The notes beneath the pieces were generated by a model that saw only the letters and a program-made list of their open reading frames with translations, did not search any database and had not been told where the DNA came from. A stretch of 64,000 nucleotides of DNA from a virus. Numbering within the stretch: the first letter of the stretch is position 1; the number at the start of each line of letters is the position of its first letter. Below, piece by piece: positions 16,303 to 22,119 of this stretch. The DNA lies in IMG/VR virus record IMGVR_UViG_3300034031_000020, positions 1 through 64,000 of that record, one strand, 5' to 3'. The translations under genes and the position numbers were made by a program.

Positions 16303-16800
16303 ATGAGCATACTCACCCCCGGGCAGGATCTCAGATATCAGGCGCAACGCCGGGCGTACGCCCTGGGCGGACCGGTCCAGGTACGGGACTGGGAACTCCC
16401 GGCGGGCGACGGTGCGTGGACCCTCCTGGCCCGGTGCGGGCAGCAGCAGCCGGGCGCCCCTGACCCGGACATGTTCTTCCCACTGAAGAGTGACAGCGCC
16501 GAGACGTACCAGGCGCAGGCGTACTGCGCGCAGTGCCCCGTCCGGGACCTGTGCGACCAGGCGGCCACCAAGAACCGGTGGGTCGGCGTGTGGGGCGGCA
16601 TCCTGCGCGACGACCGGGGCAACCCGGTGCCGCTGTGCAAGGAACCCGGGTGCCTGCGGTACCGGGCCGTCGGCGCCGCCCGGTGCGGACCGTGCGGCAC
16701 CCGGTTCGGCCGCCCCCGCGCATCCCGGGCGGCATCACAGACCCCGGCGACCGAACTGGTCGCCGAGACCACCGAACGAGAGGTGGTGATGGTCGCGTGA
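16303..16800 (+). CDS. WhiB-family iron-sulfur transcription factor
   Basis: 165 aa. It has the four-Cys signature C45-x29-C75-x2-C78-x5-C84 that holds a 4Fe-4S cluster, followed by the GVWGG turn at about residue 94 and an extra C-terminal Cys-rich zinc-like segment (CKEPGC, CGPCG). WhiB proteins bind the main sigma factor and are confined to actinobacteria and their phages, which identifies the host group. ATG preceded by GAGAGAC. The phage copy may redirect host transcription or affect superinfection. Ends in a GTGA overlap. Confidence 0.88.
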   Translation: MSILTPGQDLRYQAQRRAYALGGPVQVRDWELPAGDGAWTLLARCGQQQPGAPDPDMFFPLKSDSAETYQAQAYCAQCPVRDLCDQAATKNRWVGVWGGILRDDRGNPVPLCKEPGCLRYRAVGAARCGPCGTRFGRPRASRAASQTPATELVAETTEREVVMVA

Positions 16801-18136: not shown

Positions 18137-18582
18137 CCGCCGAGCAACTGCTGTTGCCGCTGCCGGGCCCACTCATGGGCCCGGCAGCGGCGCCGCCTAA
18201 GCCGGACGAGTCCCCGGACCGGCGGCGCACCCGGCGGCAGCGCGAAGCGGTCACGAACGGGGTCCACCCCCTCACCGTGTCCCTGTCCGGACCGCTCGGC
18301 CTGCACCGTCAGGCCGCCGAGCAGGGACGCACGTGCGGGAACTGCCGATTCCGGGACCTGATCCAGGGCCCCAGTGCCAGCGCCCACCCGAAGTGCCTCG
18401 TCGAGCGGGGGCCGCACAGCCGGACCACCGCCTACGACTGCCCGTACCCCCGGGTCTCGTTCGGCTCGGGCACGGACGTGCGGAAGTGGTGGCCCGCCTG
18501 CCCTGATCACGAGTGGGGAGACAACGGACTCAGCCCGGACGCCGCCCGGTCCGGGCCTGCCGACGTCAACGCAGACGAATAG
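18133..18582 (+). CDS. Zinc-binding hypothetical protein
   Basis: 149 aa from a GTG overlapping the upstream TGA. Disordered basic first third, then CGNCRF, with more Cys at KCL, DCPYP and ACPDHEW giving a likely zinc site of the kind found in small phage replication-region proteins. Just upstream of the replication ATPase gene. No family recognised. Confidence 0.65.
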   Translation: MTAEQLLLPLPGPLMGPAAAPPKPDESPDRRRTRRQREAVTNGVHPLTVSLSGPLGLHRQAAEQGRTCGNCRFRDLIQGPSASAHPKCLVERGPHSRTTAYDCPYPRVSFGSGTDVRKWWPACPDHEWGDNGLSPDAARSGPADVNADE

Positions 18583-18592
18583 AGATCACACC

Positions 18593-19993
18593 ATGACCAG
18601 AGACGCTGACGTCCTGTCCGTACCCGACGACCCATGGGAGGGGATGCTCGACGAGAACGGCGACGTCGTTGAGCCGCCGGACGATGACGCGACCTCGGTC
18701 ACCCGCGCCGAACGGGCGTCCGCCGACCCGGACGACTTCTGGCAGGCCCGGCCGATCCTGAAGCACATCCACGCCTTCGCCCGCAGCCAGCGGGTAGGCC
18801 CGTGGGCGGTCCTCGGGACGGCGCTGGCCCGGGTCATCGCGCAGACGCCCCCGGAGATCCAGCTCCCCCCCACCATCGGCTCGTACGCGAGCCTGAACCT
18901 GTTCGTCGGCCTGGTCGGGGAGTCCGGCGACGGTAAGGACGCCGCGCAGGAAGTCGCCGCCGATGCGCTCTACATCGAGAACCCCACGTTCCGGGTCGCC
19001 CCCCTCGGTTCCGGTGAGGGGCTCGCGCACATGTTCATGCGGCCCGGCAAGGCCACGAAGGACGACCCGTACCCGGAGGCCGAGCAGTACAACCGGTCCA
19101 GCCTCGTCACCATCGGGGAGATCGACTCGTTGGCCGCCCTCGTCCAGCGACAGTCGTCCACCGTGACGACGCAGCTCCGTCAGGCGGCCATGGGGCAGCA
19201 GCTCGGGTTCTTCTACGCCGACGCGGCGAAACGGATGATGGTCCCGCCGCACTCCTACCGGCTGTGTCTCGTCGCGGGCATCCAGCCGGAGCGGTCCGGC
19301 ATCCTGTTGAACGACGAGGCCGGTGGGACCCCGCAGCGGTTCATCTGGCTGCCGACCGGCGACCCCGGCGCGCAGCGCAGCGTCCCCCCGGCGCCGACCC
19401 CCATGATCTGGCAGCCGCCGGACTGGATGTATGCCGAGCGGGCGCACTCCAACGGGCAGATGAGACGACTCGTCACCCTCCCGGAGATCGTCCGGGACAT
19501 GATCATTGACGCGCGGGTGAGCAGGCTCCAGGGGACCGGCGAGAAGCTCAACTCCCACGCGTTGCTGACCCGGGCGAAGGTCGCCGCCGCGTTCATGATC
19601 CTGGACGGCCGGTACCGGCCGGAGGAAACCGACTGGGACCTGTCCGGCACCGTCATGACGGTCTCCGACACGCAGCGGGCCCGCTGCCAGCGCGCACTCC
19701 AAACCGAGGCGAAGAAGGCCAACCTCGGCAAGGCCCTGGCCGACGCGGACCGGACCCTCGTCGTGGAGGAGCACATCGACCGGGTAAAGGTCACGAAGTG
19801 TTCCGAATCGGTCAAGCGCATCTTAAGGATCAACGGCGCAGTGACCAGTGGGGTGCTCCGCCAGAAACTCCACGTCAGTAACCGAGAGTATATGGACGCG
19901 GCGGTTGACGTTCTCCACCTGGCGGGGGAGATTCAGGTCGAGGAGACTGAGTACCGGGGGCAGAAGGGGAAGCGGATATGGCTCCCCGAGTAA
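18593..19993 (+). CDS. Replication-type AAA/RecA-fold ATPase with C-terminal winged helix
   Basis: 466 aa. A P-loop-like GLVGESGDGKD (residues 106-116) has Asp where Ser/Thr normally follows the Lys. A Walker B-like SLVTIGEIDSL follows about 70 residues later. The last about 60 residues (KCSESVKRILRINGAVTSGV to LAGEIQVEE) read as a winged helix. The plan resembles DUF3987-like and helicase-type replication proteins that open an origin or unwind DNA. It lies immediately before the AT-rich inverted-repeat region, which supports an initiator or helicase role. Confidence 0.68.
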   Translation: MTRDADVLSVPDDPWEGMLDENGDVVEPPDDDATSVTRAERASADPDDFWQARPILKHIHAFARSQRVGPWAVLGTALARVIAQTPPEIQLPPTIGSYASLNLFVGLVGESGDGKDAAQEVAADALYIENPTFRVAPLGSGEGLAHMFMRPGKATKDDPYPEAEQYNRSSLVTIGEIDSLAALVQRQSSTVTTQLRQAAMGQQLGFFYADAAKRMMVPPHSYRLCLVAGIQPERSGILLNDEAGGTPQRFIWLPTGDPGAQRSVPPAPTPMIWQPPDWMYAERAHSNGQMRRLVTLPEIVRDMIIDARVSRLQGTGEKLNSHALLTRAKVAAAFMILDGRYRPEETDWDLSGTVMTVSDTQRARCQRALQTEAKKANLGKALADADRTLVVEEHIDRVKVTKCSESVKRILRINGAVTSGVLRQKLHVSNREYMDAAVDVLHLAGEIQVEETEYRGQKGKRIWLPE

Positions 19994-20009: not shown

Positions 20010-20176
20010 TTTAAGGGGTGTAGGGGTGTACCAGGTACACCCCTTGGCTACAAATAAGCCTGAATCGACGATCATCGAAAAAGGCTCTGACCTGCATATA
20101 TATAAAAAAATGGTCTGATATATAGAGAGGGTTTGCGGCCAAGGGGTGTACCAGGTACACCCCTACACCCCTTAAA
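20010..20176. other. Candidate replication origin: long inverted repeat around an AT-rich core
   Basis: Two 39-bp arms (20010-20048 and 20138-20176) are inverted copies matching at 38 of 39 positions. Each arm contains a palindrome GGGGTGTACC-A-GGTACACCCC beside a further AAGGGGTGTA block. The 89-bp centre is AT-rich, with runs such as ATATATATAAAAAAA, in an otherwise very GC-rich genome. It lies in the 220-bp gap right after the replication ATPase gene. Iteron-like palindromes flanking an easily melted core are what an origin needs; a paired terminator or partition site is the main alternative. Confidence 0.65.
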
Positions 20177-20213
20177 TCAAGATCACGGCACGTCGAGCGA
20201 AGGAGCCATCCAG

Positions 20214-20882
20214 GTGAGCGAGCGACCCGACAGCGACCACAGCGACAACGTCCCGGACGTGACCACCTCAGCCGGGGAAGACATCACCGAGAACACACAG
20301 CGAGTGACAGACGGCCGTCCGGCGGTTCCTGTCGATGCGGTCGAAGGCCGGACCCCGACGGGCGGCGAGGGCGGTTCGCGGCAGGGCCTGGGTACGGGTC
20401 GGGTGTCGGTGGTCCACGTGGACGCGGCCTCCGGTGCCTCGCTCCCCCCGTTCGACGTCTCGGCGGCGGTCGCGGCGTGCGTCGCGGCGACCGGGGCACC
20501 GGTGGCGCTCACGCCCCCGCAGTGCTGCCCGGTGTTCCCGGACGGCGCGCATCGGTGCGGCCTGCCCGCGACGCACCTCGCTGGCACCTCTGAGAGCGCC
20601 GTGGAGGGCCGTTCGGCGGCGGACCACGTCTGTGGGTGCGGCTTCGTGTGGTGTTCGACCTCGGGCGGCGTGAGCGGGCTGTGCGCGGACATGGAGCAGT
20701 CGTCCCGGTCGGGCGCTGAGCGGGTCGTGAGCCGGATCGTGGAGCGGCTGACGAAGGTGGGGTACGACCTGACCGACAAGGAGTGGCGGGTCGCGGCGGG
20801 TGCGGGCGGCGGCGGCCGTTCGGGGTTCTCCCCGGTGGAGGTGGTCCGGCAGGTGGCGCGCCGGGAGGGCGCCGATCTGTGA
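20214..20882 (+). CDS. Hypothetical 222-aa protein with Cys-rich core
   Basis: GTG start at 20214 with GAAGGAGCC upstream. The first 85 residues are disordered (Ser/Thr/Gly/Asp). The middle has several Cys pairs (QCCPV, HRCGL, CGCGFVWC), and the C-terminus has a helix (VVSRIVERLTKVGYDLTDKE) and a Gly-rich turn. A zinc-binding core is likely. First gene to the right of the candidate origin. No family recognised. Confidence 0.65.
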   Translation: MSERPDSDHSDNVPDVTTSAGEDITENTQRVTDGRPAVPVDAVEGRTPTGGEGGSRQGLGTGRVSVVHVDAASGASLPPFDVSAAVAACVAATGAPVALTPPQCCPVFPDGAHRCGLPATHLAGTSESAVEGRSAADHVCGCGFVWCSTSGGVSGLCADMEQSSRSGAERVVSRIVERLTKVGYDLTDKEWRVAAGAGGGGRSGFSPVEVVRQVARREGADL

Positions 20883-20930
20883 GACCCTTCTGGGCGGTAT
20901 GAACTGCCTGCCGACTTGGAGGACCTGAGG

Positions 20931-21638
20931 ATGATCACCAACACGGACGCCCCCGTGCACGGCCACACGGCCGACAGCACGGGGGCGCGCACCGACGAGG
21001 CCCCGACGGATGTCCTCGACGACCGCGCGGATTGTGAGCACTGCCGAGGGACGGGGAAAGCGTTGCGGACGTCGGACTGGCTGGCGGCGTCGTTGACGCT
21101 GTTCCCGACGGAGTCCCCGGAGAAAATGGACTCGATCATCGCGGAGTTCTACCGGCGGCTCGTGGCCGCCGACGAGGGCAAGGACCTGGGCGACCGGGTC
21201 GCCCCGCTGTTCCCGGCGGACCTGACGACGGGTCCGGCGTTGAACTCGAAAGGCAACCGGCAGCGGGACATGCTGCTGCACGCGATCGTGAGCTTGGTCG
21301 AGAACTTCGACCCGGATCATCTGAACTCGGCGAACATGCGCCAGTTGGTGGAGATCCTCCGGAAGGAGGGCCGTAACCACGCCGCATTCGAGCGCCCGGA
21401 CGGCACGGTGCGTGGGGTGACGCGGGCGGAGTACGAGGAAGTCGGCGCCGTCCTGATGACGATGCTGCGGGAAGTGTTCGCCGACCTGTGGCTACCCCAG
21501 TTCGACGCGGGGTGGGTCGAGGCGTACGAGTTCGCGATGATCGAGATGCTGCACGCGCAGCAGCACTATCGGATGCCGGACGGCCGCCGACCGCAGTTCG
21601 GGCGCCGGGTCCGGGCCTCCGTGGGGGGTGCCGAGTGA
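20931..21638 (+). CDS. Globin-domain protein
   Basis: 235 aa. The ATG at 20931 is preceded by GGAGG. Residues about 48-212 fit the bacterial globin fold: Y74 (EFYRRL, B10), F94 (PLFPAD, CD1), H150 (EGRNHAAF, the haem-binding F8 position), then GVTRAEYEEVG (Y168, G5) and WLPQFDAGWVEAYEFAMIEML as the G-H helices. Loops before F94 and after H150 are longer than in Vitreoscilla haemoglobin. The N-terminal extension has a CEHCRGTG motif like a DnaJ zinc half-site. Likely binds haem and an oxygen or NO ligand; the role in infection is unknown. Confidence 0.7.
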   Translation: MITNTDAPVHGHTADSTGARTDEAPTDVLDDRADCEHCRGTGKALRTSDWLAASLTLFPTESPEKMDSIIAEFYRRLVAADEGKDLGDRVAPLFPADLTTGPALNSKGNRQRDMLLHAIVSLVENFDPDHLNSANMRQLVEILRKEGRNHAAFERPDGTVRGVTRAEYEEVGAVLMTMLREVFADLWLPQFDAGWVEAYEFAMIEMLHAQQHYRMPDGRRPQFGRRVRASVGGAE

Positions 21639-21877
21639 TCACCGGTCAGAAAGTGGTCACGCCGGGGGCTTTGGCCGCCGCGTTCACGGAGTGGGACCGC
21701 CGGTACCGGGAGGACCCGGAGGGTTTCGACCGGGAGTACCAGGCGACCTCGTCGGCGACGGAGTACGGGGCCCGCGCGGCGGAGTACCTGTTGAAGGTCC
21801 TCCGCAGCCAGGGCGGGGTCGCGACCCTGTCCGAGGGTGCGATCGTCCGTGACCCGGTCGTCGAGGGTGACGCGTGA
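21635..21877 (+). CDS. Hypothetical 80-aa protein
   Basis: GTG start by GTGA overlap with the globin gene, ending in another GTGA overlap. Helical with many charged and aromatic residues (AAFTEWDRRYREDPEGFDRE). Such overlap ties its output to the globin gene. No family recognised. Confidence 0.64.
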   Translation: MITGQKVVTPGALAAAFTEWDRRYREDPEGFDREYQATSSATEYGARAAEYLLKVLRSQGGVATLSEGAIVRDPVVEGDA

Positions 21878-22119
21878 CGCGCCGGTCCGGCCCCGGGGTC
21901 CGGGCGAAGCGGCAACAGGCCCGCGACGCGCGGCGCCGGGCGGCGAAACCGTTGACAGTGGCCGCGATCGCGCGGTCGGTGGCCACGAACTCGTTGTCCG
22001 GGGCCGTCCTCGGCGGCCAGCCGCGTACGGCCCGGGTCCCGGCGTACCGGGCTGACCCGGCGGTCCAGCGCCCGAACCTGATTCAGCAGTGGATGAGGGC
22101 GAGGGGCCGGACGCGGTGA
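21874..22119 (+). CDS. Small basic protein
   Basis: 81 aa from an overlapping GTG. The N-terminal third is strongly basic (RAKRQQARDARRRAAKP), suggesting nucleic-acid binding. The middle (LTVAAIARSVATNSLSGAVL) could be a short helix-turn-helix. Coupled to both neighbours. No family recognised. Confidence 0.6.
   Translation: MTRRSGPGVRAKRQQARDARRRAAKPLTVAAIARSVATNSLSGAVLGGQPRTARVPAYRADPAVQRPNLIQQWMRARGRTR

What the first reader, a model, noticed from the sequence alone, without database searches (positions are those of the whole stretch)
20931..21638. A phage-encoded globin
The protein carries the B10 Tyr, CD1 Phe, F8 His and G5 Tyr positions and the GV...Y..VG and W...W.EAY patterns of bacterial haemoglobins. 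Globins are rare in phages. It could scavenge oxygen or NO during infection, or use haem as a sensor next to an origin. The zinc-like CxxCxGxG start and coupled small genes 21635-22119 may work with it.
Basis: partly seen in the sequence, partly recalled or inferred. Interest (0 to 1): 0.8.

Follow-up and report, generated by a model that had tools for sequence, protein, structure and literature searches.

The report
A family of phage-encoded haemoglobins
A group of uncultured viruses that infect actinobacteria carries its own haemoglobin gene, with every key haem-pocket residue kept across six divergent virus genomes; haemoglobins had not turned up in any trustworthy phage record that I could search, and the protein probably binds oxygen and removes nitric oxide during infection.

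Summary
The finding holds. Window 20931-21638 (+) encodes a 235-residue protein that is a genuine 3/3 globin. It has Tyr B10 (Y74), Phe CD1 (F94), Gln E7 (Q111), Leu E11 (L115), His F8 (H150) and Tyr G5 (Y168). A profile of 48 cellular-type globin domains scores it 54 bits; the best of 5000 shuffles scores 8.4. A profile of phage relatives alone matches almost only solved globin structures. With an alignment it folds confidently, closest to E. coli flavohaemoglobin (Z 15.0). It lies in a 79-kb tailed actinophage record just after the DNA primase/polymerase gene. Five more phage records of the same lineage encode it (32-57% identity). The six form one clade (support 100/99), near globin domains of actinobacterial flavohaemoglobins. 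All six keep the pocket, lack a fused reductase, have an N-terminal CxxC, and carry an FG-corner insertion absent from all 54 other globins compared. No reliable globin was found among 50,697 deposited phage records. Most likely it is a haem-binding single-domain haemoglobin that captures O2 and detoxifies NO with a host reductase. That mechanism is inferred. Haem binding is strongly predicted but not shown.

The parts
20931..21638 (+). phage haemoglobin gene, 235 aa (P0001): N-terminal CxxCxGTGK (aa 35-43), 3/3 globin domain (about aa 45-213), basic C-terminal tail
20918..20922 (+). GGAGG ribosome-binding site, 8 bases before the ATG
   Evidence: read directly
21033..21059 (+). codons 35-43, CEHCRGTGK: CxxC(xGTGK) motif, half of a DnaJ-type zinc ribbon; a CxxC is in all six phage globins
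   Evidence: some of the six weakly match CxxCxGxG families
21150..21152 (+). codon 74, Tyr B10
21210..21212 (+). codon 94, Phe CD1
21222..21260 (+). codons 98-110, CD-D loop LTTGPALNSKGNR, longer than in cellular globins; conserved as LTTGxAxNSxGxx in G000, G464 and G002
21261..21275 (+). codons 111-115, Gln E7 to Leu E11 (QRDML)
21378..21380 (+). codon 150, proximal His F8
21387..21413 (+). codons 153-161, FG-corner insertion region FERPDGTVR, predicted hairpin; insertion present in all six phage globins, absent from 48 cellular-type and 6 other globins
21432..21434 (+). codon 168, Tyr G5
18374..19993 (+). DNA primase/polymerase-like protein upstream (context)
20010..20176 (.). inverted-repeat pair (45-nt arms, 77 nt apart) with a 23-nt palindrome-like repeat; candidate replication origin
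20133..20882 (+). ORF upstream with a Cys-rich C-terminal part (start codon unsure); weak relative in G464 only
21635..21877 (+). 80-aa ORF overlapping the globin stop (GTGA); no relative found
21874..22119 (+). 81-aa ORF; 51% identical relative just downstream of the globin in G464

Best explanation
It is a phage-encoded single-domain haemoglobin, descended from the globin domain of an actinobacterial flavohaemoglobin-like protein and kept by selection in one lineage of actinophages. Most likely it binds haem b through His150 (F8) and holds O2 on the iron with Tyr74 (B10) and Gln111 (E7). The oxy-haem then turns nitric oxide into nitrate (NO dioxygenase), and a host reductase returns the iron to the ferrous state. 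This would protect the infected or lysogenic cell, and NO-sensitive iron-sulphur or haem enzymes needed for replication, from NO made by the host or by neighbours. The CxxC arm probably binds zinc across a dimer or is a redox/partner contact. Shown here: globin homology, conserved pocket, phage location, single origin, no fused or phage-encoded reductase of this type. Inferred: haem binding (very likely), O2 binding (likely), NO dioxygenation (the most likely of several functions).
For: Globin profile 54 bits against 8.4 for the best of 5000 shuffles. A profile of the six phage proteins alone finds almost only globins in the PDB (38 of 39 rows, best E = 2.1e-10), and Pfam Globin matches three of the six (best 3.7e-7). 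AF2 with alignment: pLDDT 84, pTM 0.79, helices A, B, E, F, G and H; VIA-align Z 15.0 to E. coli Hmp, 14.6 to Hell's Gate globin I, 14.0 to Vitreoscilla Hb. Tyr B10, Phe CD1, Gln E7, Leu E11, His F8, Tyr G5 and Val G8 are invariant in all six despite 32-57% identity. B10, E7, E11 and G8 are among the residues that hold O2 and gate NO entry in E. coli flavohaemoglobin (PMC7948479). Single-domain globins such as Cgb of Campylobacter are NO dioxygenases (PMC6950321). No FAD/NAD reductase domain in the 79-kb record.
Against: No haem or activity measurement. The confident AF2 model used globin relatives, so it is not independent; without them the model was poor (pLDDT 40, no fold match). Two features of canonical flavohaemoglobins are missing: Lys F7 (N/D/S/S/S/R here) and Glu H23 (Q/A/G/A/S/A). 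They are also missing in the actinobacterial relatives, so an NO dioxygenase of the Hmp type is not assured. No phage reductase partner was found. The H-helix Trp (W195) is lost in G464.
Confidence: 0.5

Rival explanations
1. O2 capture and delivery, as proposed for Vitreoscilla haemoglobin: the globin raises usable O2 in low-oxygen hosts so that respiration and oxygen-dependent steps keep going during phage production.
For: Single-domain globin with the Tyr B10/Gln E7 pocket; VHb is among the closest folds (Z 14.0); no reductase needed.
Against: Tyr B10 plus Gln E7 usually gives very slow O2 release, poor for delivery (own knowledge). The function of VHb itself is unsettled (PMC6950321).
Confidence: 0.2
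2. Haem-based gas sensor: O2 or NO binding changes the N-terminal CxxC zinc/dimer part, which contacts a phage or host regulator and tunes replication or the lysis-lysogeny choice.
For: CxxC arm kept in all six and joined directly to helix A. FG-corner hairpin next to the proximal His is found only in the phage clade. In G000 and G464 the gene sits beside the primase and a candidate origin.
Against: No output domain as in globin-coupled sensors. In G002, G443 and G425 the gene lies elsewhere, downstream of an FtsK-like ATPase gene, so the link with the origin is not general.
Confidence: 0.17
3. A globin fold recruited for a task without haem, for example binding a host or defence protein.
For: Loop regions are unusually conserved (LTTGxAxNSxGxx, FxRPDGxxR). 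Globin-like folds without haem exist, such as the stress-signalling RsbR N-domain (own knowledge).
Against: His F8, Phe CD1 and the ligand-binding Tyr B10, Gln E7 and Leu E11 are invariant in six proteins only 32-57% identical to the window's; little would keep them without haem and a gas ligand.
Confidence: 0.05
4. A bacterial gene caught in a mis-assembled or contaminated virus record, not a phage gene.
For: Such errors occur: globins in deposited phage records here lie in bacterial chromosome or unverified contigs.
Against: The gene lies among phage genes, is syntenic in G464 and recurs in six related phage records as one clade apart from bacterial globins.
Confidence: 0.01

Closest known systems
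Globin domain of actinobacterial flavohaemoglobin-like proteins (Streptosporangiales, Streptomycetaceae; e.g. loci L010-L056)
   Same: Nearest in sequence (about 25-34% identity over the globin domain), same pocket, same QRDxL E-helix, same lack of Lys F7 and Glu H23
   Different: Those lie in longer open frames of roughly 360-870 codons, with a reductase domain seen in the ones read in full; the phage protein has none and adds the CxxC arm and FG insertion
E. coli flavohaemoglobin Hmp (1gvh)
   Same: Closest solved fold (Z 15.0, 145 residues aligned); Tyr B10, Gln E7, Leu E11, Val G8, His F8, Tyr G5
   Different: Hmp has an FAD/NAD module, Lys F7 and Glu H23; the phage protein lacks all three
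Single-domain bacterial globins: Vitreoscilla VHb, Hell's Gate globin I, Campylobacter Cgb
   Same: Globin domain only; distal Tyr/Gln pocket (VHb compared here); close folds for VHb and HGbI
   Different: Phage protein is closer in sequence to the actinobacterial two-domain clade, has an extra N-terminal CxxC and FG hairpin, and is carried by phages
Anti-TRAP / TIGR02642 CxxCxGxG zinc domains
   Same: CxxCxGxG pattern of the N-terminal arm (weak matches)
   Different: Only one CxxC half-motif, so a complete Cys4 site would need a second subunit

Membership tests
Globin superfamily (3/3 globin) | significant sequence similarity to globins beyond chance | tested here: met
   54 bits vs 8.4 for shuffles; phage-only profile finds PDB globins; Pfam Globin in 3 of 6 members. 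The window member alone is below Pfam detection.
Globin superfamily (3/3 globin) | globin fold with helices A-B-E-F-G-H | tested here: met
   AF2 with alignment pLDDT 84, Z 15.0 to 1gvh; not independent of the alignment; single-sequence model uninformative
Globin superfamily (3/3 globin) | proximal His F8 and Phe CD1 | tested here: met
   H150 and F94; invariant in six phage proteins and 48 others
Globin superfamily (3/3 globin) | haem binding | not testable with these tools
   needs purified protein
Flavohaemoglobin (Hmp type) | C-terminal FAD/NAD reductase domain in the same protein | tested here: not met
   235 aa, globin plus short ends; no PF00970 or PF00175 in the 79-kb record
Flavohaemoglobin (Hmp type) | Lys F7 electron gate and Glu H23 proximal relay | tested here: not met
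   F7 N/D/S/S/S/R, H23 Q/A/G/A/S/A in the six
Flavohaemoglobin (Hmp type) | Tyr B10, Gln E7, Leu E11, Val G8 distal site and tunnel gate | tested here: met
   all invariant in six; roles from PMC7948479
Single-domain bacterial globin (VHb/Cgb type) | globin domain without reductase, 3/3 fold, B10 Tyr and E7 Gln | tested here: met
Single-domain bacterial globin (VHb/Cgb type) | groups with those proteins in a tree | tested here: inconclusive
   phage clade falls with actinobacterial two-domain globins, not with VHb; Cgb not included
Globin-coupled sensor | globin fused to a signalling output domain | tested here: not met
   no room for one in 235 aa and no other domain found
Truncated (2/2) haemoglobin | short 2/2 fold with reduced A and F helices | tested here: not met
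   A and F helices present in the model; best aligned chains are 3/3 globins

The most novel reading that the evidence does not exclude
A phage-specific class of haem gas sensor: O2 or NO at the haem, read through the clade-specific FG hairpin and the CxxC zinc/dimer arm, controls phage DNA replication or the choice between lysis and lysogeny.
Probability: 0.15. Interest if true: 0.9.

Novelty: new variant of a known kind. Interest (0 to 1): 0.62.

Why it matters
No reliable phage globin was found in 50,697 phage records or as a confident match among predicted viral structures, and no paper describing one turned up. A maintained globin family in phages would mean that O2 or NO chemistry matters during infection of actinobacteria. 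It adds NO detoxification to the possible list of virus-carried metabolic functions and offers a compact globin with unusual loops and a CxxC arm for biochemical study.

Tried and rejected
Direct scan of viral contigs with the window protein or primase alone found nothing; the window's own record and near copies may be left out there. A six-sequence alignment was too diverse to give search patterns. A DNA pattern for DLTTGPA found 18 contigs; of the 17 others searched none had a globin match. 396 actinobacterial genomes held no phage-type globin and no near relative of the capsid, so the host is not identified; the tool warns that an empty answer without a positive control shows little. Structure without alignment was useless. 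BFVD gave no confident viral globin fold (a weak Yasminevirus match, probability 0.60, was not followed). A link between globin and WhiB was considered: WhiB is found in 3 of 5 globin-bearing and 4 of 14 other long lineage records, no clear association. Cooperation with the coupled small genes was rejected for lack of co-conservation. Paper searches found no phage globin.

Full report
WHAT IS THERE. The window is the first 64 kb of an IMG/VR virus record of 79,451 bases. Its genes are those of a tailed actinophage: exonuclease, ERF annealing protein, RuvC, WhiB, a DNA primase/polymerase, endolysin, terminase, portal, head protease, major capsid protein and tape measure protein. The nearest deposited relatives are phages of Gordonia and Mycobacterium (primase 36%; capsid 28%). 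The gene at 20931-21638 follows the primase gene and a repeat-rich gap. It has a clear ribosome-binding site (GGAGG) and the codon-position composition of real genes in this record.

IT IS A GLOBIN. The window protein alone is below Pfam detection, but NCBIfam flavohaemoprotein (E 0.0068) and solved haemoglobins (best E 0.011) are its weak best matches. tblastn against plasmids gives globins and hmpA as the leading annotated hits; three unannotated hits read here proved to be globin-reductase frames. A scan of bacterial genomes returned 47 actinobacterial relatives. A profile built from 48 globin domains (those 47 plus one from a 166-kb viral-collection contig, L009), with none from this phage family, scores the window protein 54.0 bits (E 5.6e-15) and the G002 relative 35.4 bits; the best of 5000 shuffles reaches 8.4. 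The reverse test is free of any circular step: a profile of six phage proteins alone finds 39 PDB sequences at E up to 0.01, of which 38 are globins (best 2.1e-10; the exception is a BID chain at 0.005). Pfam Globin matches three of the six at up to 3.7e-7.

STRUCTURE. Without relatives AlphaFold2 gave no usable model (pLDDT 40; no fold match). With 42 aligned sequences, residues 31-222 fold at mean pLDDT 84 and pTM 0.79, with helices A, B, E, F, G and H. Foldseek ranks globins first, at modest E-values. VIA-align gives E. coli flavohaemoglobin Z 15.0 (rmsd 2.9 over 145 residues), Hell's Gate globin I 14.6 and Vitreoscilla haemoglobin 14.0. This model leans on the globin alignment, so it agrees with the sequence evidence rather than adding a separate proof.

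A PHAGE FAMILY, NOT A ONE-OFF. An alignment-guided scan of viral contigs found a 47% identical protein in a 63.7-kb record (L008 = G002). That record belongs to the same lineage: terminase 51%, portal 50%, capsid 52%, primase 50%. A primase scan brought in a 76.4-kb record (G464) with the globin in the same place. Searching 50 lineage records found it in G443, G419 and G425 as well. In all, six phage records have it; most searched relatives do not, though many of those are fragments. The other five proteins are 32-57% identical to the window's. The six form one clade (support 100/99) on the side of actinobacterial globins, away from Vitreoscilla and Hmp types. One acquisition from an actinobacterial flavohaemoglobin-like gene, with loss of the reductase part, is the simplest reading; the exact donor branch is poorly supported (84/62), and the tree warns of long branches (G425 among them).

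CONSERVED ANATOMY. In all six, B9 Phe, B10 Tyr, CD1 Phe, E7 Gln, E11 Leu, F8 His, G5 Tyr and G8 Val are identical. Two features are specific to the phage clade: a CxxC just before helix A, mostly as CxxCxGTGK or a near variant (G425: CEACG), and an insertion of about eight residues at the FG corner next to the proximal His, absent from the 48 relatives and six other globins. Three members (G000, G464, G002) share a long CD-D loop, LTTGxAxNSxGxx. Lys F7 and Glu H23, which canonical flavohaemoglobins use for electron entry and proximal tuning (F7: PMC7948479; H23: own knowledge), are absent both here and in the actinobacterial relatives. P0001 has only two cysteines, so a Cys4 zinc site would need a second subunit; that the arm is a zinc clasp is inference.

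SETTING. In G000 and G464 the globin follows the primase and an inverted-repeat pair, 20010-20054 and 20132-20176 in the window. A similar pair lies just downstream of the primase in G464 and G002, so this is a candidate origin. In G002, G443 and G425 the globin instead lies a few kilobases downstream of an FtsK-like ATPase gene and small membrane-protein genes. The window's own copy of that ATPase lies outside the window and is 67% identical to that of G002. So the globin has moved within the lineage and does not depend on one neighbour. Of the two translationally coupled small genes only 21874-22119 has a relative beside a globin (G464), and 21635-21877 has none.

HOW IT MAY WORK. Invariant His F8, Phe CD1, Tyr B10, Gln E7 and Leu E11 under strong overall divergence argue that haem and a gaseous ligand are used. 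In E. coli flavohaemoglobin Tyr B10 and Gln E7 hold the bound O2 as ferric-superoxide while Leu E11, Val G8 and residue E15 gate the ligand tunnel (PMC7948479). NO dioxygenation by single-domain globins is known (Cgb; PMC6950321). The record has no FAD/NAD reductase domain, so a host reductase is assumed. I put NO removal first, O2 capture/delivery second and gas sensing third. Haem binding is very likely, but no step of the chemistry has been shown.

HOW RARE. In INPHARED neither the window protein nor its G002 relative finds a globin. Globin queries from cells find globin matches in five records: two Acinetobacter 'phage' contigs, one of which I read and which carries ribosomal protein genes and is therefore bacterial chromosome; two unannotated records marked UNVERIFIED; and a 1.5-kb unannotated Salmonella fragment. 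BFVD holds no confident globin match. Paper searches in the open-access library found no report of a phage globin; subscription journals are mostly not covered.

VERDICT. A real, previously undescribed (as far as could be searched) family of phage haemoglobins: a new variant of a known kind. My own estimates: globin identity about 0.98; haem binding about 0.9; NO dioxygenation as main role about 0.5.

Noticed in passing
window 20010-20176; L165 11434-11606; L081 13936-14104: Inverted-repeat pair (arms 29-53 nt, 67-111 nt apart) just downstream of the primase/polymerase gene in three related phages: AGGGGTGTACC...GGTACACCCCT in the window, similar in G464, GGGGTGGACA...TGTCCACCCC in G002. Looks like a conserved origin or replication-protein binding site.
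   Followed up: partly
L002 13687-15927 (record 73687-75927, - strand); L008 3586-5787: Large protein with Walker-type motifs and N-terminal membrane stretches, FtsK/Tra-like by eye, 67% identical over its whole length between G000 and G002; no Pfam match. It sits upstream of the globin in G002, G443 and G425.
   Followed up: partly
window 16303-16800: WhiB-like regulator (Pfam E 2e-12). Cellular WhiB proteins carry NO/O2-sensitive iron-sulphur clusters, so it could share a stimulus with the globin, but it does not clearly co-occur with the globin across the lineage.
   Followed up: yes
G425 (IMGVR_UViG_3300034134_000009), both ends: The globin gene appears to run across the two ends of this 62.7-kb record, suggesting a circularly permuted or circular genome.
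   Followed up: no
CAKLQH020000003.1 and CAKLQF020000004.1 (Acinetobacter phage MD-2021a): The first, deposited as a phage contig, is bacterial chromosome around the match (ribosomal protein operon, hmpA, nsrR); the second gives the same hmpA hit and is probably the same. A source of false phage globins.
   Followed up: partly
L009 7923-9080 (IMGVR_UViG_3300021406_000010, 166 kb): A two-domain globin-reductase frame of 385 aa in a contig classed as viral; probably cellular DNA or a different kind of element.
   Followed up: no
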